Position numbers and translations under genes: made by a program. From NCBI RefSeq assembly GCF_001042655.1, contig NZ_AP012332.1:310001-374000 (forward strand): a DNA stretch of 64,000 bases, read 5' to 3'. The stretch's first letter is position 1; each line of letters starts with the position of its first letter. The notes beneath the pieces are model-generated. The model searched no databases. It saw only the letters and a list, made by a program, of their open reading frames with translations, and was not told where the DNA came from. Positions 2,876 through 15,512 of this stretch are shown here, piece by piece. Origin of the DNA: Gardnerella vaginalis ATCC 14018 = JCM 11026. GTDB taxonomy: Bacteria; Actinomycetota; Actinomycetes; Actinomycetales; Bifidobacteriaceae.

Positions 2876-4390
2876 ATGGCTATGGAAAATCCTTTTGAGA
2901 ACAAAGAAGTGTGGTTTGCTGTAGGTTCGCAAGAACTATATGGTCCAGAAACACTAGAACAAGTGGCAAAACAAGCTGGCGAAATCGTAGATTATTTAAA
3001 TAATCAACATTCGATACCTGTGAAAATTGTTTTGAAACCAACCTTAAAATCATCTGACGCTGTGCGTAATTTTATGGTTGATGCGTCTTCAAAAGAATCT
3101 TGTATCGGTGTTATTGCTTGGATGCACACGTTCTCGCCAGCAAAAATGTGGATTCGCGGATTAGAACTGTTGCGTAAACCTTTGCTTCAGTTGAATACCC
3201 AGTATCATCGTGAAATACCTTGGGAAAGTATTGATATGGATTTTATGAATTTAAATCAAGCTGCTCATGGAGATAGAGAATTCGGTTATATTGTTTCTAG
3301 ACTTGGTATTAGAAGAAAAATAGTTGTTGGTCATTATACGAATCCAGAAGTTTCGGATCGCATAAATACTTGGGTTCGTGCGTGTTTAGGCTGGTGGGCG
3401 TCTAACAATATGAACGTTATGCGTTGGGGAGACAATATGCGTAACGTTGCTGTTACTGAAGGAGATAAAACTGAAGCTGAGAAAATCTTTGGTGCATCTA
3501 TTAATACTTGGTCTGTAAACGAATTAAATTCATATGTTAATCGTGCTACAGATAAGCAAGCTAAAGATTTGATAGAAGATTATAAAAATAAATACAATAT
3601 TGATCCAGAATTATTAAATCAAAAATATGATTCTCTGTTAATTGCAGCTAAGCAGGAAGTTGGAATGGTATCCATGATGTGTGATTATGATGCTACTGCT
3701 GCAGTAGATAATTTTGAAGATCTTGGTGGTCTTTCCCAACTTCCAGGAGTTGCTGCTCAACGTTTTCCTTCCGAATATGGATGGGGTTTCTCGGCAGAAG
3801 GGGATTGGAAAACCGCAATATTGGTTCGTTTGGGATTAGTTATGGGGTATGGTCTTGAAGGTGGAGCTTCTCTTATGGAAGATTACTCGTATCATTTTGA
3901 GCCAGATAACGAAATGATATTAGGATCACATATGTTAGAAGTTTCGCCTTCTATTGGAAGTATTCAAAAACCTCGTCTTGCTATATATCCATTGGGTATT
4001 GGAGGAAAATCAGATCCTGTTAGACTCGTGTTTACTGCTGCTCCTAAAAAGGATGCTGTTGTGGTTTCTCTTGCGGATATGTGCAGTAGATTTAGACTTT
4101 TAATGAATATTGTCGATGTTGTAGAGCCGTCTGGAAGCCTAAAGAATTTGCCTTGCGCTCGCGCCATGTGGAAACCGCAGCCAAGTCTATCTTTGTCTGC
4201 GCAATGCTGGTTATTAGCTGGTGGATCCCATCATACTTGTATGACAACGTCAATTGGTAGAGAAGTTTGGGAAGATTTTGCGCGTATCTCTGGTGTCGAA
4301 CTAGCTGTGATTGATAAAAACACTAATACCCAAGATTTTGAGCGCAATCTACAGATTTCTCAAATGTATTACAAGCTTAATGTTAAGTAA
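2876..4390 (+). CDS. araA: L-arabinose isomerase
   Basis: This 504-residue enzyme isomerises L-arabinose to L-ribulose in the cytoplasm. The N-terminus (ENKEVWFAVGSQELYGPETL) is the typical AraA opening, and the expected conserved stretches follow, including WMHTFSPAKMWI, the QLNTQYHR segment and the C-terminal GGSHHT substrate/metal region. A GGAG ribosome binding site precedes the ATG. It is the third sugar-catabolic gene of the operon. Codons here and in the two preceding genes are richer in AT-ending and ATA/TTA codons than most of the window, suggesting a different history. Confidence 0.96.
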   Translation: MAMENPFENKEVWFAVGSQELYGPETLEQVAKQAGEIVDYLNNQHSIPVKIVLKPTLKSSDAVRNFMVDASSKESCIGVIAWMHTFSPAKMWIRGLELLRKPLLQLNTQYHREIPWESIDMDFMNLNQAAHGDREFGYIVSRLGIRRKIVVGHYTNPEVSDRINTWVRACLGWWASNNMNVMRWGDNMRNVAVTEGDKTEAEKIFGASINTWSVNELNSYVNRATDKQAKDLIEDYKNKYNIDPELLNQKYDSLLIAAKQEVGMVSMMCDYDATAAVDNFEDLGGLSQLPGVAAQRFPSEYGWGFSAEGDWKTAILVRLGLVMGYGLEGGASLMEDYSYHFEPDNEMILGSHMLEVSPSIGSIQKPRLAIYPLGIGGKSDPVRLVFTAAPKKDAVVVSLADMCSRFRLLMNIVDVVEPSGSLKNLPCARAMWKPQPSLSLSAQCWLLAGGSHHTCMTTSIGREVWEDFARISGVELAVIDKNTNTQDFERNLQISQMYYKLNVK

Positions 4391-4483
4391 TATTGGCATT
4401 ATTACGTCTCTAGTGATGAGTGTTTGTTGTGTTATTATTTCCTTTGAAAATAATGGTCAATTTTATAGCGAAGGGGTGCTTTA

Positions 4484-5344
4484 ATGAATGAAAATATGCA
4501 CATTGTGCCTAACATTTTATTATCGGATGGCAATTCTATACCACAAGTTGGTTTAGGTGTACTTCGAGTTGATAAAGTAAGTATGCATGATGTTGTAGAA
4601 AGCGCTCTTTCGTTAGGATACAGACATATTGATGCTGCAGCTGGATATAACAATGAGAATGAGCTAGGTGAAGTATTGCGCGAAACTGGTTTTAATACTG
4701 GCGAATTGCGAGAAAACCTATGGGTGACTACAAAAGTTAGAGATTCACAGCAGGGGTATGACAGTACTTTGAAGGCTTTTGATTCTCAACTTGCGGATCT
4801 TTGCTTGAACTATGTGGATATGTATATGATTCATTGGCCTACACCATTTGATTGGCGTTCTACAGAAACATGGAAAGCATTTGTTAAGTTGAAAGAGGAA
4901 GGTAGGGTACGTTCGCTTGGTGTGTGTAACTTTATGCCTTCTGATTTGCAGCGTTTATATGATGAAGTTGGTCAGTGGCCTCAAGTGAATCAGATTGAAT
5001 TGCATCCGAGCTGGCAGCAGTCTAATGTAGTTGATTTTTGCAAGAAGCATAATATTGCTATTGAAGCGTATTCTCCATTGGCGCGCGGACGTGATTTGAA
5101 TATCGGCGATGGTGTTTTGGAAACTATTGCTAAGAATCATGATGTTACTTGTGCGCAGGTGATTTTGCGCTGGCATATTGAGCATGGATACATTATCATA
5201 CCTAAATCTGTTTCAGAAAATAGGCAACGTGAAAATATTAATGTTTTTGGATTTAGTCTTAAGGATGATGAAATACGTGCAATAGATGATTTGAACACTA
5301 ATGAGCGAATGGGGCATGACCCTGCAACGTTTAGTTATGCATAA
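4484..5344 (+). CDS. Aldo/keto reductase
   Basis: A cytoplasmic NAD(P)H-dependent oxidoreductase of 286 residues in the aldo/keto reductase (2,5-diketo-gluconate reductase-like) group. Catalytic tetrad candidates are visible: Asp and Tyr in HIDAAAGYNNE, Lys in TTKVRDSQ and His in MIHWPTP; the cofactor region IIPKSVSENRQREN near the C-terminus fits the family. A GAAGGGG ribosome binding site lies before the ATG. It is 93 bp downstream of araA and may be co-transcribed; a role in arabinose or other aldose reduction is possible, but the substrate cannot be read from sequence. Confidence 0.9.
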   Translation: MNENMHIVPNILLSDGNSIPQVGLGVLRVDKVSMHDVVESALSLGYRHIDAAAGYNNENELGEVLRETGFNTGELRENLWVTTKVRDSQQGYDSTLKAFDSQLADLCLNYVDMYMIHWPTPFDWRSTETWKAFVKLKEEGRVRSLGVCNFMPSDLQRLYDEVGQWPQVNQIELHPSWQQSNVVDFCKKHNIAIEAYSPLARGRDLNIGDGVLETIAKNHDVTCAQVILRWHIEHGYIIIPKSVSENRQRENINVFGFSLKDDEIRAIDDLNTNERMGHDPATFSYA

Positions 5345-5480
5345 TTGTGTGGCGTTTGTTTTATTTGTATTTGTGAAGGGGTTATATATGTGACTTATTG
5401 ATTCCTTGTCATCGAGGCTACGAGTGATTAATGGTGGACAGTATAAGTGAACAAAAAATTTTCGTAGCTTTCTCCTATAG

Positions 5481-5524
5481 AGCGGCATGAAGTTTGTGTT
5501 TTACATGATCTTCATGCCGCTTTG
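5481..5524. terminator. Terminator between aldo/keto reductase and the ABC importer
   Basis: A perfect 12-bp stem AGCGGCATGAAG / CTTCATGCCGCT with a 17-base AT-rich loop followed by TTT. It separates convergent genes and can serve the plus-strand transcript. The rest of the 274-bp gap 5345-5618 shows nothing else convincing. Confidence 0.65.
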
Positions 5525-5618
5525 CCCGTGTTTGTAGTCAGATTTGCTTAAAAAGGGAACAAACGCGGGAATGGGGTTACGCTTATGTGAGCGCAATTAC
5601 TGCGTAGTTCACAAAAAA

Positions 5619-6443
5619 TCAATGTCGGAAAGACTTAAAGAAGTTTTGCGTTTCTGGGTCACTGCAAGCATCCATAACTTCGTATGGTGTGCCATTCTCT
5701 GCAACAACGCCGTTTCGCAGCAAAACCACTCTATCGGCAGCTTCGTGCGCAAAATGCATCTCGTGAGTAGCCATTAAAATCGTGGTTCCTTGCTCTTTTA
5801 GTTCCGCAACCATGTCTAGAACTTCGCCAACAAGCATTGGGTCTAGCGCGGAAGTAATCTCGTCTAAAAGCAAAAGTTGTGGGCTTGTCATAAGCGCGCG
5901 TGCAATCGCCACTCGTTGCTGCTGTCCGCCCGAAAGCTGATCCGGATAAGACTTTGCTTTATTTTCTAGCTTAATCCTAGATAGAAGCTCCATTGCGCGG
6001 CTTTCTGCGCGGTCTTTGCTCCAATGATGAACTTTTCGCGCAGCAAGAGTCACATTATCTAAAACGCTCATATGCGTAAAAAGATTGAATTGCTGGAACA
6101 CAACTCCGATTTGAGACCTAATTTGATCCTGATTTATACGAGGATCTGTAATATCTGTGTTTCCAAGCCAAACTTGGCCGTCGTCTACTCGCTCAAGCAG
6201 ATTAATGCACTTCATAAGAGTGGATTTTCCGCTTCCAGAAGGTCCTAAAAGAGCCACCACTTCGTGAGGTGCAATATCAAAAGAAATGCCTTTAAGAACA
6301 GGTGTTGAGTTATACGATTTTCGAATATTGCTTAAGCGCAAAACTGGGGTTGAATCCGTGTAATCACTTGTATTCGTTTGATCACTTGTGTTTGTGTAAT
6401 CGCTCATTTGCTGACTTACCTTCTGGTTTGTTAAGTTATTCAT
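5619..6443 (-). CDS. Polar amino-acid ABC importer, ATP-binding subunit
   Basis: This 274-residue ATPase energises uptake by the neighbouring permease and binding protein. Visible motifs are Walker A (GPSGSGKST), the Q-loop region FQQFNLF, the signature LSGGQQQRVAIARAL, Walker B with LLLLDEITSALD and the switch histidine in MATHEMHFA. The start was set at the ATG whose A is shared with the last base of the permease stop codon (TGATG), with GGAGGA inside the permease end as ribosome binding site; this implies translational coupling. Residues 1-30 are Thr/Ser/Asp-rich. It is GlnQ/HisP-like; the exact amino acid is unknown. Confidence 0.93.
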   Translation of the reverse strand: MNNLTNQKVSQQMSDYTNTSDQTNTSDYTDSTPVLRLSNIRKSYNSTPVLKGISFDIAPHEVVALLGPSGSGKSTLMKCINLLERVDDGQVWLGNTDITDPRINQDQIRSQIGVVFQQFNLFTHMSVLDNVTLAARKVHHWSKDRAESRAMELLSRIKLENKAKSYPDQLSGGQQQRVAIARALMTSPQLLLLDEITSALDPMLVGEVLDMVAELKEQGTTILMATHEMHFAHEAADRVVLLRNGVVAENGTPYEVMDACSDPETQNFFKSFRH

Positions 6444-7345
6444 CACACGGTTCCTCCGTTTAGCTCGCGTTTGCGCAGCCTTGCCGTATACCAATCGTTT
6501 AGAACAATAAACGGAATGCTCAGCGCTATAAACACAACGCTTGCTACAACGTATGGAGTGAAGTTATAAGAAGTTGCAACAGATATTTGCGCGGCTCGAA
6601 CAGCGTCTACAGCGCCCAAAACCGATATAAGTCCTGCATCTTTTTGCATAGATATAAAGTCGTTCATTAAAGCAGGAGCCACTTTTCTTAAGCCAAGAGG
6701 AATTACCACTAATCGCACAGTTTGACCAGATGTTAAGCCAAGTGATCTTGCGGACGCTCGCATAGACGGATGCACGTCTTCAAATCCTGCGCGCAATACC
6801 TCTCCAACGTATGCGGAGTAGCTCATAACAATGGCAATTGTACCGAGTATTGCTGGTGGAATTCGCCCAAAAAGCTGTAATCCTGGTATGCCAAAGCCGA
6901 TTAAGTAAAGCACAACAAGCATTGGTATGCCGCGCATAATAGTTGTGTAGAATTGCGCTATAGCTCGCAAAGGGAAAAGCATTGGGCTTACGCTTGTACG
7001 AATAACTGCGATTAAAGTTCCAAGTATTGCTACTCCAATAACAGCGAAAACAAGCACCTGCAGATTAAGCATTAAGCCTTGCAAAACGGATGGCAAAGAT
7101 AACATAAAGTACTTGCCAGAAAAGAACGTTTCGCGCACTCTTGGCCAACCAGGGCTCATTGCAAGTGCCGCAACGCACACGCCAAGTAATACTAAAGTGC
7201 TTATTATGCTTGTTAAAACTGATTTAAGATTTTGCTTTTTGCGGATTGACCTACGCTCAAGCTCGATATTGCTTAAAGCGTATTCTCCAGCGTTGTTTGA
7301 TTCACTGTTTAATGCATTGCCGTTAAGTACTGTCATTGGCGGCAC
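6443..7345 (-). CDS. Polar amino-acid ABC importer, permease subunit
   Basis: An inner-membrane permease of the HisMQ/GlnP family, 300 residues, with an N-terminal cytoplasmic tail, a first membrane helix at about residues 40-62, and further helices through to the C-terminus. The ATPase-docking EAA loop is visible as GEVLRAGFEDVHPSMRASAR with LGLTSGQ following. I chose the GTG at 7345 because a GAAAGG site is five bases upstream of it, better placed than for the ATG three codons later. It overlaps the ATPase start by one base and lies 144 bp after the binding-protein gene, across a strong hairpin. Confidence 0.92.
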   Translation of the reverse strand: MPPMTVLNGNALNSESNNAGEYALSNIELERRSIRKKQNLKSVLTSIISTLVLLGVCVAALAMSPGWPRVRETFFSGKYFMLSLPSVLQGLMLNLQVLVFAVIGVAILGTLIAVIRTSVSPMLFPLRAIAQFYTTIMRGIPMLVVLYLIGFGIPGLQLFGRIPPAILGTIAIVMSYSAYVGEVLRAGFEDVHPSMRASARSLGLTSGQTVRLVVIPLGLRKVAPALMNDFISMQKDAGLISVLGAVDAVRAAQISVATSYNFTPYVVASVVFIALSIPFIVLNDWYTARLRKRELNGGTV

Positions 7346-7369
7346 TCAAGCCTTTCGACATAATGAATG

Positions 7370-7434
7370 ATACGCACTATTGTAAGCACTTTTATGTGAC
7401 GATTGGGTTACAAGTTGCTTACAATAATGCGTAT
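7370..7434 (-). promoter_or_regulatory. 19-bp intercistronic hairpin between binding protein and permease
   Basis: ATACGCACTATTGTAAGCA (7370-7388) and TGCTTACAATAATGCGTAT (7416-7434) form a 19-bp stem with a 27-base loop. The single non-Watson-Crick position is C-A on the plus strand but G-U on the minus-strand transcript, which fits an RNA structure in the importer mRNA. It probably stabilises the upstream binding-protein message or partly terminates transcription before the permease, giving excess binding protein. Confidence 0.65.
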
Positions 7435-7489
7435 TGGTAATGACGTTAGTACGATTTTTATTTATTTTTATTTATTTTTGGTTTAGTTT

Positions 7490-8359
7490 TTACTTAAGAA
7501 CTGGCAGATTAGTCGTGTACTCTGCAAGCCACTTTTCTTGGAGCTTCTTCAAAGTACCATCTTTTTCTAGCGCATTCACAGCCTTAGTGACGTCTGCAGT
7601 AAGCTTAGAGCCTTTTGGAAGTACCAATCCAGTTCCTTCCTTATCTTCCGATCCTGCAATCTGTCCAAGAACAACACCTTCTTTAACCTGCTTGCTGCGC
7701 ACAATGTTTACGGAAGATGGAGTATCTATAACAAGTGCGTCAATCTGCTTAGAATCAAGAGCCTGAACCAAAGCGTCATTATCGTTAAAGGTTTGAATAT
7801 CGCTCTTAATCTTGTCTTTAGCAAAGCTGTAGCTTGTTGTTCCAACCATTGCGCCAATTGTAGCGGTTTTAAGGTCTGCTAAGGTCTTTGCGTTAGCAAA
7901 CTTGCTATCTTTTTTGACCACAACACCCTGAGTTGCGTTGTAGTAACTTGGCGAAAAGTCTACTGCCTTCTTGCGTTCCTCCGTAATAGAGAACTGCTGA
8001 AGGTTAAAATCAAAGTCTTTTGGTCCTGGGGTTACTGCGGAGTCGAAGGTTGTGCGAACCCACTTTACTTTGTCTTTATCGTATCCGAGTTTCTTTGCAA
8101 CAGCGTATGCTACTGCAGATTCGTAGCCCTTGCCGTTTTCTGGCTTGTTATCGTACATCCAAGGTGTGTAAGTTGGCTGAGCTGTGCCGATTGTCAAAAC
8201 GCCTGGAGTAATCGTCTTTTGGTTTGTATCTTGTGCGTTTTGGCTGCCGCATGCTGCTGTGCTAACCATTGCTGCCATTGCTAATGCTGCTGCTGCAATT
8301 TTTGCAGCAGCGATTGCTACGCGGTTGGTGTGCAAGTTGTTGTGTACGAAAATAGCCAT
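7490..8359 (-). CDS. Polar amino-acid ABC importer, substrate-binding lipoprotein
   Basis: A 289-residue extracellular solute-binding protein of family 3. It has a positively charged N-terminus, a hydrophobic signal stretch (about residues 14-32) and a lipobox ending STAAC, so Cys37 is the probable lipid attachment site on the outer face of the membrane. Family features include the DFDFNLQQFSITEERKKAVDFS segment. AAGGAG four to five bases before the ATG fixes the start. It is the first gene of the importer operon and diverges from the nucleosidase gene. The ligand is not determinable by eye; polar or charged amino acids are usual for this family. Confidence 0.92.
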   Translation of the reverse strand: MAIFVHNNLHTNRVAIAAAKIAAAALAMAAMVSTAACGSQNAQDTNQKTITPGVLTIGTAQPTYTPWMYDNKPENGKGYESAVAYAVAKKLGYDKDKVKWVRTTFDSAVTPGPKDFDFNLQQFSITEERKKAVDFSPSYYNATQGVVVKKDSKFANAKTLADLKTATIGAMVGTTSYSFAKDKIKSDIQTFNDNDALVQALDSKQIDALVIDTPSSVNIVRSKQVKEGVVLGQIAGSEDKEGTGLVLPKGSKLTADVTKAVNALEKDGTLKKLQEKWLAEYTTNLPVLK

Positions 8360-8625
8360 TTTTTCTCCTTGTTTTTGCTAAAACCTTAAGATTTTTCGCT
8401 TATTCGTTTTTTTAAGCGATTTAAGTAGGTTTTGCGGCCGTACATTTGATAGTTTATAAGATGCTGAAAGCATTTAAGGCTTAATTGTTACAGAATTGTT
8501 ATCGCGATTGTTTATAACGCGCTATATTTTGTTGATTTAATACGTGGTTTTGTGGTGATTAGACTTAAGTCGTAGTATGTTAAGTGTCAGTTACATACGG
8601 TGTGTTGCTTTTTGAGGAGTATTTT
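8360..8625. promoter_or_regulatory. Divergent promoter region, ABC importer / nucleosidase
   Basis: This 266-bp AT-rich gap must hold both outward promoters. A short perfect palindrome GACTTAAGTC is visible near 8560, and GAGGAG lies before the nucleosidase ATG. No riboswitch fold or terminator was recognised. Confidence 0.45.
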
Positions 8626-9516
8626 ATGTTAAATAATTTTGAACATAGCGCGGCTGACGATTTTTCTGAAAGTTCTAAAGATTTTAGTCATCTTTCAAAA
8701 CTTGCTGTTATAGTTGCACTTCAAAAAGAAGCTCAGCCTATTCTTCAAGCATTTTGTGGGGATTATAAAACTTGGGATTCGTATGGGGTTACTTTTATTC
8801 AGGGCAAAATCGCTTCGAATGGCAAAGGTGAAAATCCTACTCTTACAATATGTGTTGCTGGAATGGGAAAGTGTGCTGCCGCAGCTGCAGCTCAAGCGTT
8901 GATAATCGAATCCAATCCACAAGTGTTGATTTTTAGCGGAATCGCAGGTGCTTTAAATCCGCGTCTTAATGTTGGAGATATTGTTATAGGCAAGAAACTT
9001 CACTATTTAGAAACAAATACGCAGATTATCGCAGAGTGTGCTCCGTACAAATCTGTTTTTGAATCAGATTCAAAATTATGCGATTTAGCTGCTAAAGAGG
9101 CGCAATTATTAGGATTTAGGCTTGAGAAGTCTTTGGAAGAATCCTCTTCGGTTGCTGGCGACTTATCCTCGGACTTTAAGCAAAGCGCGTCTAATGAAAA
9201 TAGCGTGTCTAACGAAAATTCAAACAACGTTGCTTATGTGTGTGGAAACATAGCAACAAGCGACCAATTTAACACAGATCCTAATATTTTAGACGCTGTG
9301 CGAGTAACGGTTTTTGGTGATTGCGAAGAGATGGAAGGCGCTGCTGCTGCACATATTGCGGCTAAAAACGGTGTTCCATTCCTTGCGATTCGCTCAATGA
9401 GCAACCGTTGTGGAGAATCATACGAATCTGTGGACTCGCATAAGGATGATTTAGTTCTTGCAGCTAATCAAGCAGGATCGTTAACTTTGCGTGTTTTGAA
9501 GGCGCTTGTTAAATAA
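8626..9516 (+). CDS. Phosphorylase-superfamily purine nucleosidase (MTA/SAH nucleosidase-like, Asp-to-Asn variant)
   Basis: A 296-residue member of the PNP/UDP phosphorylase superfamily, closest by eye to 5'-methylthioadenosine/SAH nucleosidase and futalosine hydrolase. The N-terminal VALQKEAQPIL retains the catalytic Glu of MTAN, GIAGALNPRLNVGDIV is the nucleoside-binding loop, and EEMEGAAAAHIAAKNGVPF retains the ribose-binding Glu. The purine-facing position that is Asp in MTAN (AISD) is Asn260 here (SMSN). A Ser/Asn/Glu-rich insertion of about 35 residues precedes NVAYVCGNIA, making the protein longer than the usual ~230. The start at 8626 follows GAGGAG; an upstream in-frame start is not supported. 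It is convergent with the cupin gene. A 6-oxopurine nucleosidase is a plausible alternative to MTAN. Confidence 0.82.
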   Translation: MLNNFEHSAADDFSESSKDFSHLSKLAVIVALQKEAQPILQAFCGDYKTWDSYGVTFIQGKIASNGKGENPTLTICVAGMGKCAAAAAAQALIIESNPQVLIFSGIAGALNPRLNVGDIVIGKKLHYLETNTQIIAECAPYKSVFESDSKLCDLAAKEAQLLGFRLEKSLEESSSVAGDLSSDFKQSASNENSVSNENSNNVAYVCGNIATSDQFNTDPNILDAVRVTVFGDCEEMEGAAAAHIAAKNGVPFLAIRSMSNRCGESYESVDSHKDDLVLAANQAGSLTLRVLKALVK

Positions 9517-9528
9517 CTGCAGACTAGT

Positions 9529-10077
9529 TTACTTATTTGAATCGTTTTGTTCTGCTAAATCAAATCCGCTGAAAGTAAACCCAGGGCTTACTACGCAAGA
9601 AACAAGAACATCGCCATCGCTTGGTATTGTTCTCTGCCATGTCCCAGCAGGAATTACAAGATGTCCGCGCGTGGATAAGCCATTGCATTCCTTAGTGTTT
9701 CCAAGAGTAAAACGCTGCAAATCTGCCTCATCACAAGGGGTTTGACCACATCCACCAAGTTCAATCGTAAGATTTGACGGTCCATGCCATAGCCAAATCT
9801 CGTCTGCATCAACTTTATGCCATGCGCTTGAATCGCCAGAAGGCAAAAGGAAGTAAATAAGAGAGGCCAATGGTCTTGGTGCGTCTGCGCCAGCGTTTTC
9901 GTCAATTTTCGTATCGTTTGTGCTCGCGTTTGAAGTATTTTCATTGTTGGTTGCGCTATATAGTTGCGCTGCTTGCCAGTCGCGGGTGTACCATCCGCCT
10001 TCTGGATGAGCTTCTAGCTGTAATTCTTTAACAAGATTTTTGGCGTAATCACTCATATTTTCTAAACTGACACTCAT
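9529..10077 (-). CDS. DUF985-family cupin protein
   Basis: A 182-residue cupin-fold protein of the DUF985 (cupin 5) family, recognised by the N-terminal LQLEAHPEGGWYTRDW, the SLIYFLLPSGDSSAWHKVDADEIW core, and the C-terminal SCVVSPGFTFSGFDLAE. The function of the family is not established. The region around residues 42-60 is an Asn/Thr/Asp-rich insertion. AAAGGAG is well placed before the ATG. It lies 77 bp downstream of the amidohydrolase on the same strand, and its stop is 12 bp from the stop of the convergent nucleosidase, so it is physically part of the nucleoside cluster. A binding or oxidative role on a nucleoside or thio-compound is conceivable but unsupported. Confidence 0.85.
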   Translation of the reverse strand: MSVSLENMSDYAKNLVKELQLEAHPEGGWYTRDWQAAQLYSATNNENTSNASTNDTKIDENAGADAPRPLASLIYFLLPSGDSSAWHKVDADEIWLWHGPSNLTIELGGCGQTPCDEADLQRFTLGNTKECNGLSTRGHLVIPAGTWQRTIPSDGDVLVSCVVSPGFTFSGFDLAEQNDSNK

Positions 10078-10154
10078 AATGCATGCTCCTTTTATTTTTC
10101 ATATTTGCGTTAAATATTTGCGTTAAATGTGTTCTTATCTGTGCTTGCATCAGA

Positions 10155-11576
10155 TTATTGAGCAAAAGCACCATTATTGTATACAAGATTTCCAGAAATA
10201 ACTGTTGCTTTTGCACTACCTGCACCGTGACGCACAAAATTGTGCAAAGTCTCTTCAACTCCTTGTGGCGAGCTTGTGTCTGTTGGAATATCAAATAATG
10301 CAAGGTCGGCTGTTGCTCCAGCATTAATTTGACCAATTCTGTGCGGTCCTACGTGTAAGCCCATAACGCTTGCGCCGCCTAAAGTAAGCATGCGAATAAT
10401 TCGATGTGTTAAATCATCTTTTCTATACCCTTGCGCTGTTGCTAAATCATAGACTTTTGCAGCGTCGTCTAAAACGTCTAAAGATGGGGAAGAAGATAGT
10501 GAATCCGTACCAATCGCAAGCAAGTTTCCTTCTTCCATGTAGTCGCGAATTGGCGCGTCTCTTTCCGTAACAGTAATGCGGTTGGATCTTGGGCACAATG
10601 CCACTCCCACTCCGCGTTGACGCAAAATTCTTCGGTCTTCGCCATCTGCCCAAACTCCGTGCGCAATATGTACGTCTGGTCCAAGGGATCCGAGCTGATC
10701 CAAAAACTGAATTGCGGAAGCTGTCATTCCATGTGCTTTAAGTTCGCTGTAGCTCGCCCAAACGTTAGCATTCCAATCTGGTGCGGAATACGTGGTGAGT
10801 GTATCGGCGTGATTTCCAGCCTCCATAGGTGTTTCTGCTAAGTGTATGTGCAAGCGCATGTTTAGCTGTCTTGCAATGTCTGGCAAATCCACAAAAGGTT
10901 CGGTTTCTAGACTGTAAGGTGCGTGTGGGCTAATTCCTATACTCGGCACTCTGCCGTTGTCCATCATGTGCCCAAGCATCTCGAGCAGCTTAGCGTAGCC
11001 TTCTTCCTTCCAGTCAACGTTTTTCCAGCCCATTACCTCCCAATAGGATATCCCGTGCATGCCTTGGCTTGCAAGCGCTCCAACTGCTTCGATATCAGTT
11101 ACAATGTCGGCAGCTGCAGTAGTGCCAGCTTCCACCATCATTCTTGCGCCTTCGTATGCAGAAGTTTTCCAAGTCATCAATGATGGGTTATGCTGTTTTT
11201 CTTCTTGTGATTTGTCATAAACAACATTGAATCCTTCTTCCCAATCTCTAAAATTGCGGTATTCGCCGCGGCCTACGCTTGCCATATTAGTGTATTGCAA
11301 ATGCGTGTGTGCGTTTATAAGACCTGGTGTCATAAGACCATGCCAATGTCGTTCGTTGTTAAACATTTTCCTATAGGAATCGTTTGACATTTCATCTTTT
11401 AGAATGTCTAGTACCCACTGTCTTGTTCCAACGTGTACAACGCGTCTATTTGATACTGCTACGGCTCCTTCGGGAATAATAGGACCTGTTACTGGAATAA
11501 CCATTGCTGCACTGTATAAGGTGACTTCGCTAAGCGGCGTTGGGTGTGCAAGTGCGCGTATTGGATCTGTAAACAT
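10155..11576 (-). CDS. Amidohydrolase, SAH/MTA or aminofutalosine deaminase-like
   Basis: A metal-dependent cytoplasmic hydrolase of 473 residues in the TRZ/ATZ and MtaD/MqnX part of the amidohydrolase superfamily; relatives deaminate 5'-substituted adenosines to inosines. The metal HxH (His90, His92) lies in GLINAHTHLQY, further ligands in ISPHAPYS and HLAET, the next in HIAHGVW and the catalytic Asp in GTDSLSSSPSLD. AAGGAAAG precedes the ATG. The gene follows the adenosylhomocysteinase homologue by 92 bp on the same strand and is followed by the DUF985 cupin, suggesting one operon. The precise substrate (SAH, MTA, 5'-deoxyadenosine or another) cannot be fixed from sequence; a guanine or chlorohydrolase activity is less likely. 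Confidence 0.82.
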   Translation of the reverse strand: MFTDPIRALAHPTPLSEVTLYSAAMVIPVTGPIIPEGAVAVSNRRVVHVGTRQWVLDILKDEMSNDSYRKMFNNERHWHGLMTPGLINAHTHLQYTNMASVGRGEYRNFRDWEEGFNVVYDKSQEEKQHNPSLMTWKTSAYEGARMMVEAGTTAAADIVTDIEAVGALASQGMHGISYWEVMGWKNVDWKEEGYAKLLEMLGHMMDNGRVPSIGISPHAPYSLETEPFVDLPDIARQLNMRLHIHLAETPMEAGNHADTLTTYSAPDWNANVWASYSELKAHGMTASAIQFLDQLGSLGPDVHIAHGVWADGEDRRILRQRGVGVALCPRSNRITVTERDAPIRDYMEEGNLLAIGTDSLSSSPSLDVLDDAAKVYDLATAQGYRKDDLTHRIIRMLTLGGASVMGLHVGPHRIGQINAGATADLALFDIPTDTSSPQGVEETLHNFVRHGAGSAKATVISGNLVYNNGAFAQ

Positions 11577-11668
11577 TGCTTTCCTTATGGAATTATCGTT
11601 TAACTAATTTTGTTTCTGTTACTCTATTATTGCTTAGATTTGTTATGATTTGGTTAATTGGATTTCAT

Positions 11669-13183
11669 CTAAATATTTTCGTCTTCGGCAAATCTTGTTA
11701 AATCCCATCTATAACCATTATCTTTATTGGATTCGCTAGCACTATATCCGCGTTCTGCTAATGCAATACTTGCTATTTGATTATCGGAGCTTTCTGGCAA
11801 TTGGTAAATTCCAGAATCAAGCCGATTTTTGTCGCTATTTTTCTTGTTTTTCCCATTGTGCTCTAGCAAATACGCTACTGCGCTTACTTGAACAGCAAAA
11901 CTAAAGTCCATAATCTCAATAGGATTTCCACCGCCAGTAGTGTAATTTGTGCCGTCTCCTTCACTTATTAGTGTGATTTGCGGACCGCACGGAACTTGGA
12001 TTTTTCTTTGTGAAGTTCCAACAAATGGCTTAAAATCAGGGATTTCGTCTAGTGCAATCTCGTTTGCAATTCCGCCAATAACAGCCAAAATCGCGTTTTC
12101 TTGCATGTTTTGCATGTGTTGCAATGTAATCGTGTGTCTAACGCCTGTTGCAGAAACAATCATATTGCTTTTTTTAACAACGCATTCAAGATTATGAGCT
12201 TCAAATCCATCGAAAACTGCGCGTAAGGATTGGACAGGATTTGTATCGCAAATCGTAACTTTTGCACCCAATGCGCGTATTCTTAATGCGAATCCGCGAC
12301 CAACTGGACCGTATCCAACAACAGTTACTTTAGCGTTTTTAAAGCATTCGCTTCCAAGAATTTGCTGCATAGTAGTAACGCATGTTTCGCCAGTTCCATG
12401 ACGATTGTCAAAATCGGTTTTTAGAGCGCTGTTATTTACTGCAATCACAGGGTAGTGCAAGTGTCCAGCTTTTTGCATTGCTTCAAAAGCGCGCACTCCA
12501 CTAGTTGTTTCTTCTGCAACTCCTATTAGATTAGCTGCGATTTGCGGGCGTTCCAGGCTTGCTAGGCGCGCAAAACTTGCACCATCGTCGATTATTATGT
12601 CTGGCTGTATTTCGTCTAAGAGTTTTAGCGCACCTTCATGAGTTTGTTCAGGTGTCCAATCTCGGTTTGCTTGTACTAAAATGCCTTCTTTTTTAAGCTG
12701 ATCTGCTACTCTCTGGTCAGTTTCGTCTGGACCACAAAAAACGCCAACAATCGCTCCGTGCGCGTGCAATTCTCTAAGCAATACAGCTGTTTTTGGTTCC
12801 AACACAAGACAAACAGCTATTCTAACGCCTTCTAAATTAAGACCACTTTCTTGTAAATTGTTAAGTAGCGTGCGCATTACTGGCATATGTTTTTGCGCGT
12901 AATCTATTGCGTCTTTTCCGCTTAAATTAGGCGCATTAACCATAGTGTTTTCTATATTTTCGTAAGATTTAGTGGCATCAAAATCTGCGTATTGTTTACA
13001 AGTCGTAGGAATTATTCCCCAAGATTGCGCGCTCTGTAAGAATTTTTCCACATCACTATTTTGGTCACTATTTTTAGCATTCTCATTTTGAATATTGTTA
13101 TCTCCAATAAACACGCGTGCCCCAGCAAGAGATTGGTTAGTTCTCTGCGAAGTAATAGCAACCCATTCGCTAAAATCAATCAT
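11669..13183 (-). CDS. Divergent adenosylhomocysteinase-family protein
   Basis: A 504-residue homologue of S-adenosylhomocysteine hydrolase. Retained family features are EETTSGV, the NNSALKTDFDN segment with the catalytic Lys and Asp, HGTGE, and the NAD site VVGYGPVGRGFALRIRALGA. Changed features: the canonical CLHMT-x-ET segment reads CLVLEPKT (residues 125-132), so the catalytic His and the adenine-contacting Glu of the classical enzyme become Val127 and Lys131, and NIGHFDxEID reads VIGGIANEIA, losing a second His. The C-terminus lacks the usual final helix-loop motif and ends in a Ser/Asn/Lys-rich tail. GGAG before the ATG fixes the start. It may act on a modified nucleoside such as S-inosylhomocysteine, or have a different reaction. 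Confidence 0.8.
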   Translation of the reverse strand: MIDFSEWVAITSQRTNQSLAGARVFIGDNNIQNENAKNSDQNSDVEKFLQSAQSWGIIPTTCKQYADFDATKSYENIENTMVNAPNLSGKDAIDYAQKHMPVMRTLLNNLQESGLNLEGVRIAVCLVLEPKTAVLLRELHAHGAIVGVFCGPDETDQRVADQLKKEGILVQANRDWTPEQTHEGALKLLDEIQPDIIIDDGASFARLASLERPQIAANLIGVAEETTSGVRAFEAMQKAGHLHYPVIAVNNSALKTDFDNRHGTGETCVTTMQQILGSECFKNAKVTVVGYGPVGRGFALRIRALGAKVTICDTNPVQSLRAVFDGFEAHNLECVVKKSNMIVSATGVRHTITLQHMQNMQENAILAVIGGIANEIALDEIPDFKPFVGTSQRKIQVPCGPQITLISEGDGTNYTTGGGNPIEIMDFSFAVQVSAVAYLLEHNGKNKKNSDKNRLDSGIYQLPESSDNQIASIALAERGYSASESNKDNGYRWDLTRFAEDENI

Positions 13184-13217
13184 ATTAAACTCCTAAAAGC
13201 TCTTATATTTATTATCC

Positions 13218-14663
13218 CTATAATCCAAGTGCGTTCAAAGCTTCTTTTAAATTCTCTACTTCGATTATGTCAATACCGGGAATGCTAATTTTCTTTCGCA
13301 TATTACACACGATCGCACGCTTATAGCCGATCCTAGCTGCTTCTCTAATTCTAGGTTCCATTCTAGAAGCTGGACGAATTTGACCAGTAAGACTAATCTC
13401 ACCAATTGCGCAAGTTAAAGGTAAGACTGCCTTATTTTTGGCTGCGCTCGCCAAACTTGCCACTATTGCTAAATCGCAAGCAGGTTCTTTCGCCTTAGCT
13501 CCAGCAATCGTAGAAACGTAAATGTCTTTAGATAAAAGATTTAATCCACCATGTCTATATAAAACAGCGGTAAGCATGGCAATTCTGTTTGTGTCTACTC
13601 CAGAAACTGCGCGTCTAGGGGCTGGCAGAACCGAATCTGTAACAAGAGCCTGAATTTCAATAGGTATGCTTCTGTGTCCTTCTAAAGTAAAAGTTACGCA
13701 CGTTCCTTCATTTTTACAATCTCCATTAGAAGACAGGAAAAGCCCAGAAGGATCTGGAACCTCTTCAATACCATCGCCACTCATGTCGAAGCAGCCAACT
13801 TCGTCTGTAGGCCCAAAACGATTTTTAACAACGCGAAGCATGCGTAATGCGGTTTGACTATCTCCTTCAAATTGGCAAACAGTGTCTACAAGATGTTCAA
13901 GCGTGCGAGGACCTGCAATCGAGCCGTCTTTTGTAACGTGTCCAACAAGAAGAATTGGAATATCGCAAGTTTTAGCAACGTCTATAAGCGCGCTAGCTAC
14001 TTCTCGAACTTGAGTGGAGCCTCCTGTAATTCCTTCAACATCGCTAGAAACAATAGTTTGTGCCGAATCTACAATTGCAAGAGTTGGCTTATATTTTTCG
14101 ATTAGCGCTAAAGCTGTGTTTAAGTCTGTTGTAGACGCAAGAAGAAGATTTTGACTTATGGCATTTATGCGTGATGCGCGCAATTTTACTTGCGACTTTG
14201 ATTCTTCGCCAGAAATGTACAGGACTAAATTTTTTGTGTATTCGGCATTGTTTTTCGCAGATCCGTTGCAATTCTTGGCAATTTTTCCTGCTGTTTCTAA
14301 AAGTAGAGTAGATTTTCCGATTCCTGGTTCGCCTGCTATAAGCGTGACTGATCCTGGAACAAGCCCTCCTCCTAAAACGCGGTCAAATTCGCTAAATCCT
14401 GTGTGGATTCGCATGCCATTATCTGCTGTAATTTCACTGATTGGCTGAGCATCTACGCTAGAATCAAGATTTGTTATTGTAGAAATGTTATTTTTTGCAT
14501 TTCTAGATCTTGTGGAGGCTCGTGAAACTCCGCTTGTAGCTTTAGACTCGTGAAACTCGTTTAATGTTCCCCATTCGCCGCATTCTGGACAGCGACCATA
14601 CCATTTTGAACCACTCCAACCGCATTCGGAGCATAAGTAGTAAGTAGTAGATTTTGCAGCCAT
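13218..14663 (-). CDS. radA: DNA repair protein RadA (Sms)
   Basis: A 481-residue RecA-like ATPase that promotes branch migration during recombinational repair. It begins with the diagnostic zinc finger (Cys11, Cys14, Cys25, Cys28), followed by a Walker A motif GEPGIGKST, Walker B region LAIVDSAQT, the RadA-specific VVKNRFG motif and a C-terminal Lon-protease-like domain with ACDLAIVASLASAAKNKA. Length is typical. It ends 34 bp before the adenosylhomocysteinase homologue starts, so those genes may share transcripts, but a functional link is not implied. Confidence 0.96.
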   Translation of the reverse strand: MAAKSTTYYLCSECGWSGSKWYGRCPECGEWGTLNEFHESKATSGVSRASTRSRNAKNNISTITNLDSSVDAQPISEITADNGMRIHTGFSEFDRVLGGGLVPGSVTLIAGEPGIGKSTLLLETAGKIAKNCNGSAKNNAEYTKNLVLYISGEESKSQVKLRASRINAISQNLLLASTTDLNTALALIEKYKPTLAIVDSAQTIVSSDVEGITGGSTQVREVASALIDVAKTCDIPILLVGHVTKDGSIAGPRTLEHLVDTVCQFEGDSQTALRMLRVVKNRFGPTDEVGCFDMSGDGIEEVPDPSGLFLSSNGDCKNEGTCVTFTLEGHRSIPIEIQALVTDSVLPAPRRAVSGVDTNRIAMLTAVLYRHGGLNLLSKDIYVSTIAGAKAKEPACDLAIVASLASAAKNKAVLPLTCAIGEISLTGQIRPASRMEPRIREAARIGYKRAIVCNMRKKISIPGIDIIEVENLKEALNALGL

Positions 14664-14756
14664 GATTTGACGCTAGCTGCATTTGTAGACATTTTACCGT
14701 CATACTTTTGTGAGATAATCCAAGTATGTTGAACAGTGTTATGTGGGGTAAAAAAT

Positions 14757-15386
14757 ATGAATTCTTATGCGAATAATCCTTCTAACTCGACTTCATCTGT
14801 ATCTGCTTCTCATAACAACTTACGAAAAGTTCTTATAGTTGCCGTAATAGTGGTCGTTTTAGCTATAGTTTCCGCATTCATATGGCCTGGCTGGGCGTTA
14901 AATCGCCAGCAACCGCAGTCTGCTAAAACTCAGGTGTCTTCTGCAAAAACTCCGTCAATTAAGTCTAAAGATTTGCCTAGTACATCTACTGCACTGTTAA
15001 GATCTATGCCAGATAGTGTTCTTGATTTTGCGCGTGTTGATGCTTCTCCTAGTGCTAAATGGTCTTCCGCATCTCCTTTGGAAGAATACACTGTTAGATA
15101 TTCTACGGGAGAATCTGGCAGTGATGTTTCAGTCGTTGTTGCTCAATGGAGTAGTCGTGATTTAGCAAATAAGCAATATGAGCTTTTGACTGATGCATTA
15201 GCTGGAAGTGATATTGCTTCTGGAAAGATTCAGGTTGCTGGTAAGGCTACTGGAAGCTATGTTTTGAAGGTAGATGATAATAGTAAGACTAAAGCTAGTG
15301 CCATCTGGCAAAATGACACTGTTGTATTTGAAGTGACTGGTTTAAAACAGTCTGTTGAAAGATTCTATAAGCAATTCCCAATGTAA
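14757..15386 (+). CDS. Membrane-anchored protein of unknown function
   Basis: A 209-residue protein I do not recognise. It has an Asn/Ser-rich cytoplasmic N-terminus (about 25 residues), one hydrophobic helix at about residues 27-48 ending in FIWPGW, a Ser/Lys/Thr-rich linker, and a globular extracytoplasmic domain of roughly 130 residues with alternating beta-like stretches (YTVRYSTGESGSDVSVVVAQ, TVVFEVTG). The ATG at 14757 is preferred over the GTG at 14736 because TGGGG is placed eight bases before it. It diverges from radA and precedes the bS22 gene. A cell-surface role is inferred from topology only. Confidence 0.7.
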   Translation: MNSYANNPSNSTSSVSASHNNLRKVLIVAVIVVVLAIVSAFIWPGWALNRQQPQSAKTQVSSAKTPSIKSKDLPSTSTALLRSMPDSVLDFARVDASPSAKWSSASPLEEYTVRYSTGESGSDVSVVVAQWSSRDLANKQYELLTDALAGSDIASGKIQVAGKATGSYVLKVDDNSKTKASAIWQNDTVVFEVTGLKQSVERFYKQFPM

Positions 15387-15512
15387 CTTTCGTAGTGATA
15401 TAGGCTGTTTTGTACGTGTTTTTGTAAAATTTTGTTTTAAAATTTTCCAAAGTCGTCAAAACGGTGTAACATTAGGCAAGTTGCACACTTTACATATGAA
15501 TGGAGGCTTCAG

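What the first reader, a model, noticed from the sequence alone, without database searches (positions are those of the whole stretch)
8626..13183. Possible deaminate-then-cleave pathway for 5'-substituted adenosines through inosyl intermediates
Four adjacent genes encode a nucleosidase of the MTAN/futalosine-hydrolase type, a DUF985 cupin, an MtaD/MqnX-type deaminase and a divergent SAH-hydrolase homologue. In both nucleoside-cleaving proteins, the residue that in adenine-specific relatives contacts the 6-amino group or N7 is changed toward one better suited to a 6-oxo group: Asp to Asn260 in the nucleosidase and Glu to Lys131 in the SAH-hydrolase homologue. The deaminase between them would produce exactly such 6-oxo (inosyl) substrates. 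Established precedents: S-inosylhomocysteine hydrolase plus a SAH deaminase in Methanocaldococcus, the aminofutalosine deaminase/futalosine hydrolase pair, and Asn-versus-Asp base choice in purine nucleoside phosphorylases. 5'-Deoxyadenosine from radical-SAM enzymes such as NrdG is another candidate input. The pathway itself is inference.
Basis: partly seen in the sequence, partly recalled or inferred. Interest (0 to 1): 0.82.

Follow-up and report, generated by a model that had tools for sequence, protein, structure and literature searches.

The report
Import operon with histidine-less SAH-hydrolase relative
A vaginal bacterium and many other bacteria carry an uptake-and-breakdown gene set for what looks like a modified adenosine, built around a relative of a textbook enzyme that has lost its water-handling histidines and so probably does something other than its database name says.

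Summary
The four genes and both residues (Asn260, Lys131) are real. "Deaminate, then cleave" is partly supported, but the set is larger and its key enzyme stranger. (1) Of 79 named loci (best of 293), all 79 have the deaminase, 70 the cupin, 62 an ABC importer (window 5619-8359), 9 an ECF importer, 16 the nucleosidase. (2) Lys131 with Glu129 is the published ExK mark of S-inosylhomocysteine-preferring SAHHs, so not special to this protein. The His-less proteins form one clade (100/100). A plain SIH hydrolase is thus unlikely. (4) The nucleosidase Asn is fixed (117 of 117) and shared with 5 of 5 futalosine hydrolases read; 27 of 27 canonical MTANs read have Asp. (5) LuxS and an MTAN homologue occur in all 37 same-genus genomes, so the set is not needed for own SAH. 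Best guess: salvage of an imported 5'-substituted adenosine through inosyl intermediates, with the SAHH relative acting as a 5'-lyase. Substrate unknown; no activity tested.

The parts
11669..13183 (-). His-less SAHH-family protein, 504 aa
12791..12799 (-). Glu129-Pro-Lys131: ExK hypoxanthine-recognition pair of inosyl-preferring SAHHs
   Evidence: E in 237 and K in 237 of 238 relatives with a residue there
12803..12805 (-). Val127 in place of catalytic His55
   Evidence: 0 His in 238 relatives with a residue there; role of His55 from PMC4647836
12071..12073 (-). Gly371 in place of gate His301
   Evidence: 0 His in 239 relatives with a residue there; role
11924..11926 (-). Asn420 in place of His353
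   Evidence: 239 of 240 relatives Asn, 1 Cys; His353 acts through its main chain, so this loss alone may be mild
12923..13183 (-). N-terminal extension (residues 1-87), perhaps a relic of a second SAHH NAD domain
   Evidence: mostly confident in the model; equivalents elsewhere match SAHH NAD domains (hhalign 92-96%), this extension alone only 2-3%
10155..11576 (-). amidohydrolase, probable deaminase of the MTA/SAH/aminofutalosine type
   Evidence: PF01979; H90, H92, H218, H245, E248, H303, H306, D358 invariant in 13 of 13 aligned, D358 included in the invariant list
9529..10077 (-). DUF985 cupin (Cupin_5)
   Evidence: PF06172; in 70 of 79 named loci
8626..9516 (+). MTAN-like nucleosidase with Asn260
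9403..9405 (+). Asn260 at the position of the MTAN base aspartate
   Evidence: 117 of 117 relatives with a residue there; 5 of 5 over-cut-off futalosine hydrolases read are Asn; 27 of 27 canonical MTANs read are Asp
7490..8359 (-). solute-binding protein of the linked ABC importer
   Evidence: PF00497; follows the cupin in most ABC-type loci
6443..7345 (-). ABC permease
   Evidence: PF00528
5619..6494 (-). ABC ATPase (true start uncertain; model matches begin near residue 50)
   Evidence: PF00005

Best explanation
An import-and-salvage operon for an adenosine derivative that carries a 5' substituent. The ABC importer (replaced elsewhere by an ECF or a sugar-type importer) brings the compound in. 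The amidohydrolase turns the 6-amino into a 6-oxo (inosyl) base. The SAHH-family enzyme binds the hypoxanthine through Glu129/Lys131, oxidises the 3'-OH with NAD+, removes H4' and expels the 5' substituent. Having lost His55 and His301, it does not use the normal water-addition half of the cycle, so it is better called a 5'-lyase or other altered-5' enzyme than a hydrolase. Where present, the Asn260 nucleosidase (in two rhizobial-type loci a nucleoside hydrolase) frees hypoxanthine. The cupin handles a sugar-derived product. Shown here: gene linkage, residue patterns, fold, clade. From published work on relatives: ExK = inosyl preference; roles of His55, His301 and Asp131. Inferred: every reaction, their order, the substrate and the cupin's role.
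For: Deaminase in the same locus as the SAHH-like gene in 79 of 79 named loci, an importer recognised in 71 of 79 (62 ABC, 9 ECF), and the order sah-dea-cup-SBP-permease-ATPase in most ABC-type loci. In two database searches, ExK is kept in 237 of 238 relatives with a residue there, E156 in 234, K186 in 238 and D190 in 239 of 240, D131 in 238 of 239, while positions 55, 301 and 353 are never His; roles from PMC4647836 and PMC10978960. Nucleosidase Asn is fixed and shared with futalosine hydrolases; PDB titles show D197N/D198N MTAN mutants holding MTA or SAH. Three operons pair a His-complete ExK SAHH with the His-less one plus a deaminase; one of them has an annotated nucleoside hydrolase (L189) and another a look-alike ORF (L187, by eye). 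No second SAHH gene in the genome.
Against: No activity was measured, no ligand modelled and no coordinates inspected. ExK is not a strict rule: T. maritima SAHH cleaves both SIH and SAH, and two HxTxE(Q) enzymes also degrade SIH (PMC10978960). Two same-genus genomes keep the importer without the enzymes, so it has uses of its own. The importers belong to different families and do not name one substrate; the alpha-amino-binding Asp of the binding protein is missing in 2 of 14 rows inspected, L153 and L223. No SAH or SAM riboswitch in 8 related loci or the window. The 79 loci came from patterns that include two of the lost-His positions; only (17 of 17 rows His-less) and 59 are free of that bias, and one search covers only the nearest 120 relatives of each of two queries. 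The nucleosidase is absent from most loci.
Confidence: 0.45

Rival explanations
1. An ordinary S-inosylhomocysteine hydrolase pathway as in Methanocaldococcus and Thermotoga: SAH is deaminated, then SIH is hydrolysed to inosine and homocysteine; the histidines are dispensable here.
For: ExK motif and linked deaminase as in the known pathway; archaeal-type SAHHs are the nearest solved structures.
Against: Positions 55 and 301 are not His in any relative with a residue there; in SAHH they activate the water and gate the homocysteine channel. LuxS and an MTAN homologue are in 37 of 37 own and same-genus genomes.
Confidence: 0.15
2. The SAHH relative uses 3'-oxidation for another end: elimination of the base at C1', epimerisation, or plain 3'-dehydrogenation of an inosyl nucleoside.
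For: The oxidation and hypoxanthine-binding residues are the ones conserved. In three operons a His-complete partner could do the 5' hydrolysis, yet the His-less copy is kept beside it.
Against: Asp131, the C4' acid/base, is kept in 238 of 239, which suggests that C4' chemistry continues; 16 of 79 loci also carry a separate nucleosidase.
Confidence: 0.2
3. The SAHH relative is a non-catalytic or regulatory paralogue.
For: Loss of catalytic histidines; in some related loci a degenerate NAD-domain-like piece lies before or at the front of the protein.
Against: Oxidation residues stay almost invariant; in 78 of 79 named loci no second SAHH was found within about 8 kb, so the His-less gene persists alone.
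Confidence: 0.08
4. The genes belong to futalosine/menaquinone metabolism or another base-deamination route unrelated to 5' cleavage.
For: Nucleosidase and deaminase both score against the futalosine models.
Against: No PF02621 (MqnA/MqnD) member in the genome; both scores lie well below the curated cut-offs (83 of 125 and 97 of 320 bits).
Confidence: 0.04

Closest known systems
S-inosyl-L-homocysteine hydrolase plus SAH deaminase (M. jannaschii, T. maritima; PMC10978960: abstract, sections 9, 10, 13 and passages seen)
   Same: Archaeal-type SAHH fold, ExK nucleobase motif, a partner deaminase, NAD-binding domain
   Different: Three conserved active-site histidines lost; importer, cupin and N-terminal extension added; the same-genus genomes also have LuxS and an MTAN homologue, and G044 also a canonical-type SAHH
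Aminofutalosine deaminase plus futalosine hydrolase
   Same: Deaminase then nucleosidase logic (recalled); Asn at the base position of the nucleosidase
   Different: Below the family cut-offs; no MqnA/D in the genome; linked to a SAHH relative
MTA/SAH nucleosidase (MTAN) and LuxS
   Different: Asn for the Asp of the 27 MTANs read; the genome has a separate canonical MTAN and LuxS
Canonical adenosylhomocysteinase (AHCY)
   Same: Overall fold, 3'-oxidation residues
   Different: ExK instead of TxE(Q); His55, His301, His353 lost

Membership tests
S-inosylhomocysteine hydrolase (HxExK SAHH) | E and K of the HxExK motif | tested here: met
   Glu129, Lys131
S-inosylhomocysteine hydrolase (HxExK SAHH) | His of HxExK and His of the GHF gate | tested here: not met
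   Val127, Gly371; 0 His in 238 and 239 relatives with a residue there
S-inosylhomocysteine hydrolase (HxExK SAHH) | 3'-oxidation residues E156, K186, D190 | tested here: met
   234, 238 and 239 of 240 relatives; present in the window protein
S-inosylhomocysteine hydrolase (HxExK SAHH) | hydrolysis of SIH | not testable with these tools
   needs purified protein
Canonical adenosylhomocysteinase | HxTxE(Q) motif | tested here: not met
   V-L-E-P-K
MTAN | base Asp (E. coli Asp197) | tested here: not met
   Asn260; 27 of 27 canonical MTANs read have Asp
MTAN | fold | tested here: met
Futalosine hydrolase (TIGR03664) | curated score | tested here: not met
   83.2 bits against a cut-off of 124.7
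Futalosine hydrolase (TIGR03664) | Asn at the base position | tested here: met
   5 of 5 over-cut-off loci read have Asn, as here; that this defines the family is my reading of these rows
5'-substituted-adenosine deaminase (MTA/SAH/5'-dAdo) | metal and catalytic residues of the amidohydrolase | tested here: met
   invariant in 13 of 13; which residues bind metal is recalled
5'-substituted-adenosine deaminase (MTA/SAH/5'-dAdo) | curated equivalog score | tested here: not met
   110 bits against 522 for 5'-deoxyadenosine deaminase
Polar-amino-acid ABC importer | PF00497 binding protein with the ligand-carboxylate Arg | tested here: met
   96.7 bits against 26.4; Arg129 conserved; its role is recalled
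Polar-amino-acid ABC importer | Asp for the alpha-amino group | tested here: inconclusive
   present in 12 of 14 rows inspected, the window protein among them; missing in L153 and L223; its role is recalled

The most novel reading that the evidence does not exclude
A widespread, unrecognised branch of the adenosylhomocysteinase family has become an NAD-dependent nucleoside 5'-lyase. It takes an imported, deaminated 5'-substituted nucleoside, perhaps one with a very good leaving group such as the sulfonium of S-adenosylmethionine, expels the substituent (for SAM, methionine) and releases a 4',5'-didehydro-5'-deoxyinosine. The Asn-type nucleosidase then opens this to hypoxanthine and a keto-deoxy-sugar, which the cupin processes. 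In operons with a His-complete partner, the partner adds the water instead.
Probability: 0.18. Interest if true: 0.85.

Novelty: new variant of a known kind. Interest (0 to 1): 0.6.

Why it matters
The clade members that bear a name in public records are called adenosylhomocysteinase or SAH hydrolase, with one also listed just as hydrolase, and an NCBIfam equivalog model gives the window protein the first name, so methyl-cycle reconstructions of bifidobacteria, Gardnerella and Microbacteriaceae may be wrong. A SAHH that keeps its redox half and lost its water half would be a new use of 3'-keto nucleoside chemistry. The importer implies that these bacteria take up a modified nucleoside not identified here, which mutants and metabolomics can test directly.

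Tried and rejected
Riboswitches that could name the ligand: in 8 related loci at gathering scores only tRNAs and one fluoride riboswitch; in window 4300-15500 at E<=1 only two chance-level sRNA hits. Menaquinone/futalosine link: no PF02621 in the genome. Complementation of missing LuxS/MTAN: rejected, LuxS and an MTAN homologue are in 37 of 37 own and same-genus genomes. Orphan homologues as clues to substrate: binding-protein relatives (E<=1e-40) in 8 genomes without the SAHH-like gene, and cupins in 3 genomes without it; one of the 8 (L264, 36% identity) lies among nucleoside-catabolism genes (PF00962, PF07831, PF00383); the neighbours of the other seven were only looked at as ORFs and gave no clear hint. 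Bifidobacterial N-terminal extension as NAD-domain relic: hhalign 2-3% by itself, so it rests on the better-scoring equivalents; no unrelated Rossmann domain was run as a control, and the upstream ORF was found in L155, L183 and L170 but not by script in L158, L159, L160, L162 and L172 (L177 not searched). Exact deaminase specificity: the printed PDB alignments did not include TM0936, so its substrate-binding residues were not compared. Literature: 10 searches run, seen as listings; none listed this operon or a His-less SAHH clade; that is a statement about these searches only. Passages of the 2026 SAHH review (PMC13406329) call the GHF gate highly conserved; a term search of its main text found no Bifidobacterium. 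Passages of PMC3914940 report putative luxS genes in all public bifidobacterial genomes of the time.

Full report
What is there. The window lies in a single-contig genome of 1,667,406 bases; the nearest named relatives of its nucleosidase are Gardnerella vaginalis proteins. The four ORFs are as described and belong to PF01048, PF06172, PF01979 and PF05221/PF00670. The nucleosidase is transcribed against the other three genes. Directly beyond it lie three genes of an ABC importer (5619-8359, minus strand): PF00005, PF00528, PF00497.

Conservation of the set. Of 37 own plus same-genus genomes, the same 16 have both the SAHH-like protein and the deaminase at E<=1e-100. The 15 other such loci and one genome of another family (G044) show sah, deaminase and cupin side by side. 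A scan of the named genome collection found 293 relatives and kept the best 79 loci, from Bifidobacteriaceae, Coriobacteria, Clostridiales, Microbacteriaceae and other Actinobacteria, and Rhizobiales. Within about 8 kb, deaminase was found in 79 of 79, cupin in 70, binding protein plus permease of the ABC importer in 62, an ECF importer in 9, neither in 8, and the nucleosidase in 16. Of the 8, L130, L133 and L154 are contigs under 6 kb, L150 stops at its contig end after the deaminase, L187 has a sugar-type importer, and L143, L176 and L179 have none that I recognised. The scan patterns included the positions of two lost histidines, so residue counts from it are biased; the searches are not.

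Partial loss. Two same-genus genomes without sah and deaminase keep only the importer between radA and ribF, and three keep only the cupin near that site (radA and ribF recognised by eye). One genome (G035) has the nucleosidase without the rest.

A partner. In a Rhizobiales contig (L187), a plasmid labelled Roseateles sp. XES5 (L189) and an unnamed actinobacterial genome (L223), the His-less gene follows a second SAHH gene that keeps HxExK and the gate His. These partners form their own group, 100/100 with L224. L189 carries an annotated nucleoside hydrolase and L187 an ORF that looks like it (by eye). None of the three showed the cupin. In three ECF-type loci (L155, L183, L170) an upstream ORF of about 184-215 aa matches the SAHH NAD domain (hhalign 96%, E 5e-9, against archaeal-type and partner sequences), as do 19 N-terminal extensions from non-bifidobacterial loci (92%); the bifidobacterial extension alone does not (2-3%). 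It may be a relic of the partner; this is inference.

The deaminase. Eight listed His/Glu/Asp positions are invariant in 13 of 13 members from all three importer types. It falls far below the curated cut-off of each of the 20 listed NCBIfam models, so it is a distinct branch and its substrate is open.

The importer. The binding proteins keep Arg129 and share unusual Q121-Q122, W67, W100 and R102 (at 93% or more of the rows), which suggests a ligand larger than a simple amino acid. One distant orphan copy lies among nucleoside-catabolism genes.

Reading. The deaminase should make 6-oxo bases, and both the SAHH relative and the nucleosidase carry marks of 6-oxo preference, so deaminate-then-cleave is the best order. 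The importer, and LuxS plus an MTAN homologue in all 37 genus genomes, point to an outside compound rather than own SAH. Loss of the water-side histidines with retention of the redox side argues for altered 5' chemistry. Which compound is imported, and what the cupin does, remain unknown.

Noticed in passing
L258, L259 (G008, G028): Between radA and ribF (by eye) the ABC importer of the set stands without sah, deaminase or cupin.
   Followed up: partly
L266, L267, L268 (G025, G029, G034): Only the DUF985 cupin of the set is left between radA and ribF (by eye).
   Followed up: partly
L192 (Rubrobacter radiotolerans plasmid): A SAHH outside the group with, by motif, Pro at position 55 and Gly at 301 but His353 kept, next to a bile acid:sodium symporter gene: a second case of histidine loss.
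   Followed up: no
L187 6796-9266; L189 7748-10260; L223 8900-11889: Tandem His-complete and His-less SAHH genes, possibly a two-subunit enzyme.
   Followed up: partly
L264 2071-15417: A distant relative of the importer lies among adenosine deaminase, cytidine deaminase, pyrimidine phosphorylase and aldehyde dehydrogenase genes.
   Followed up: partly
window 11669-13183: The NCBIfam model NF004009 names the window protein adenosylhomocysteinase although it lacks the active-site histidines.
   Followed up: no
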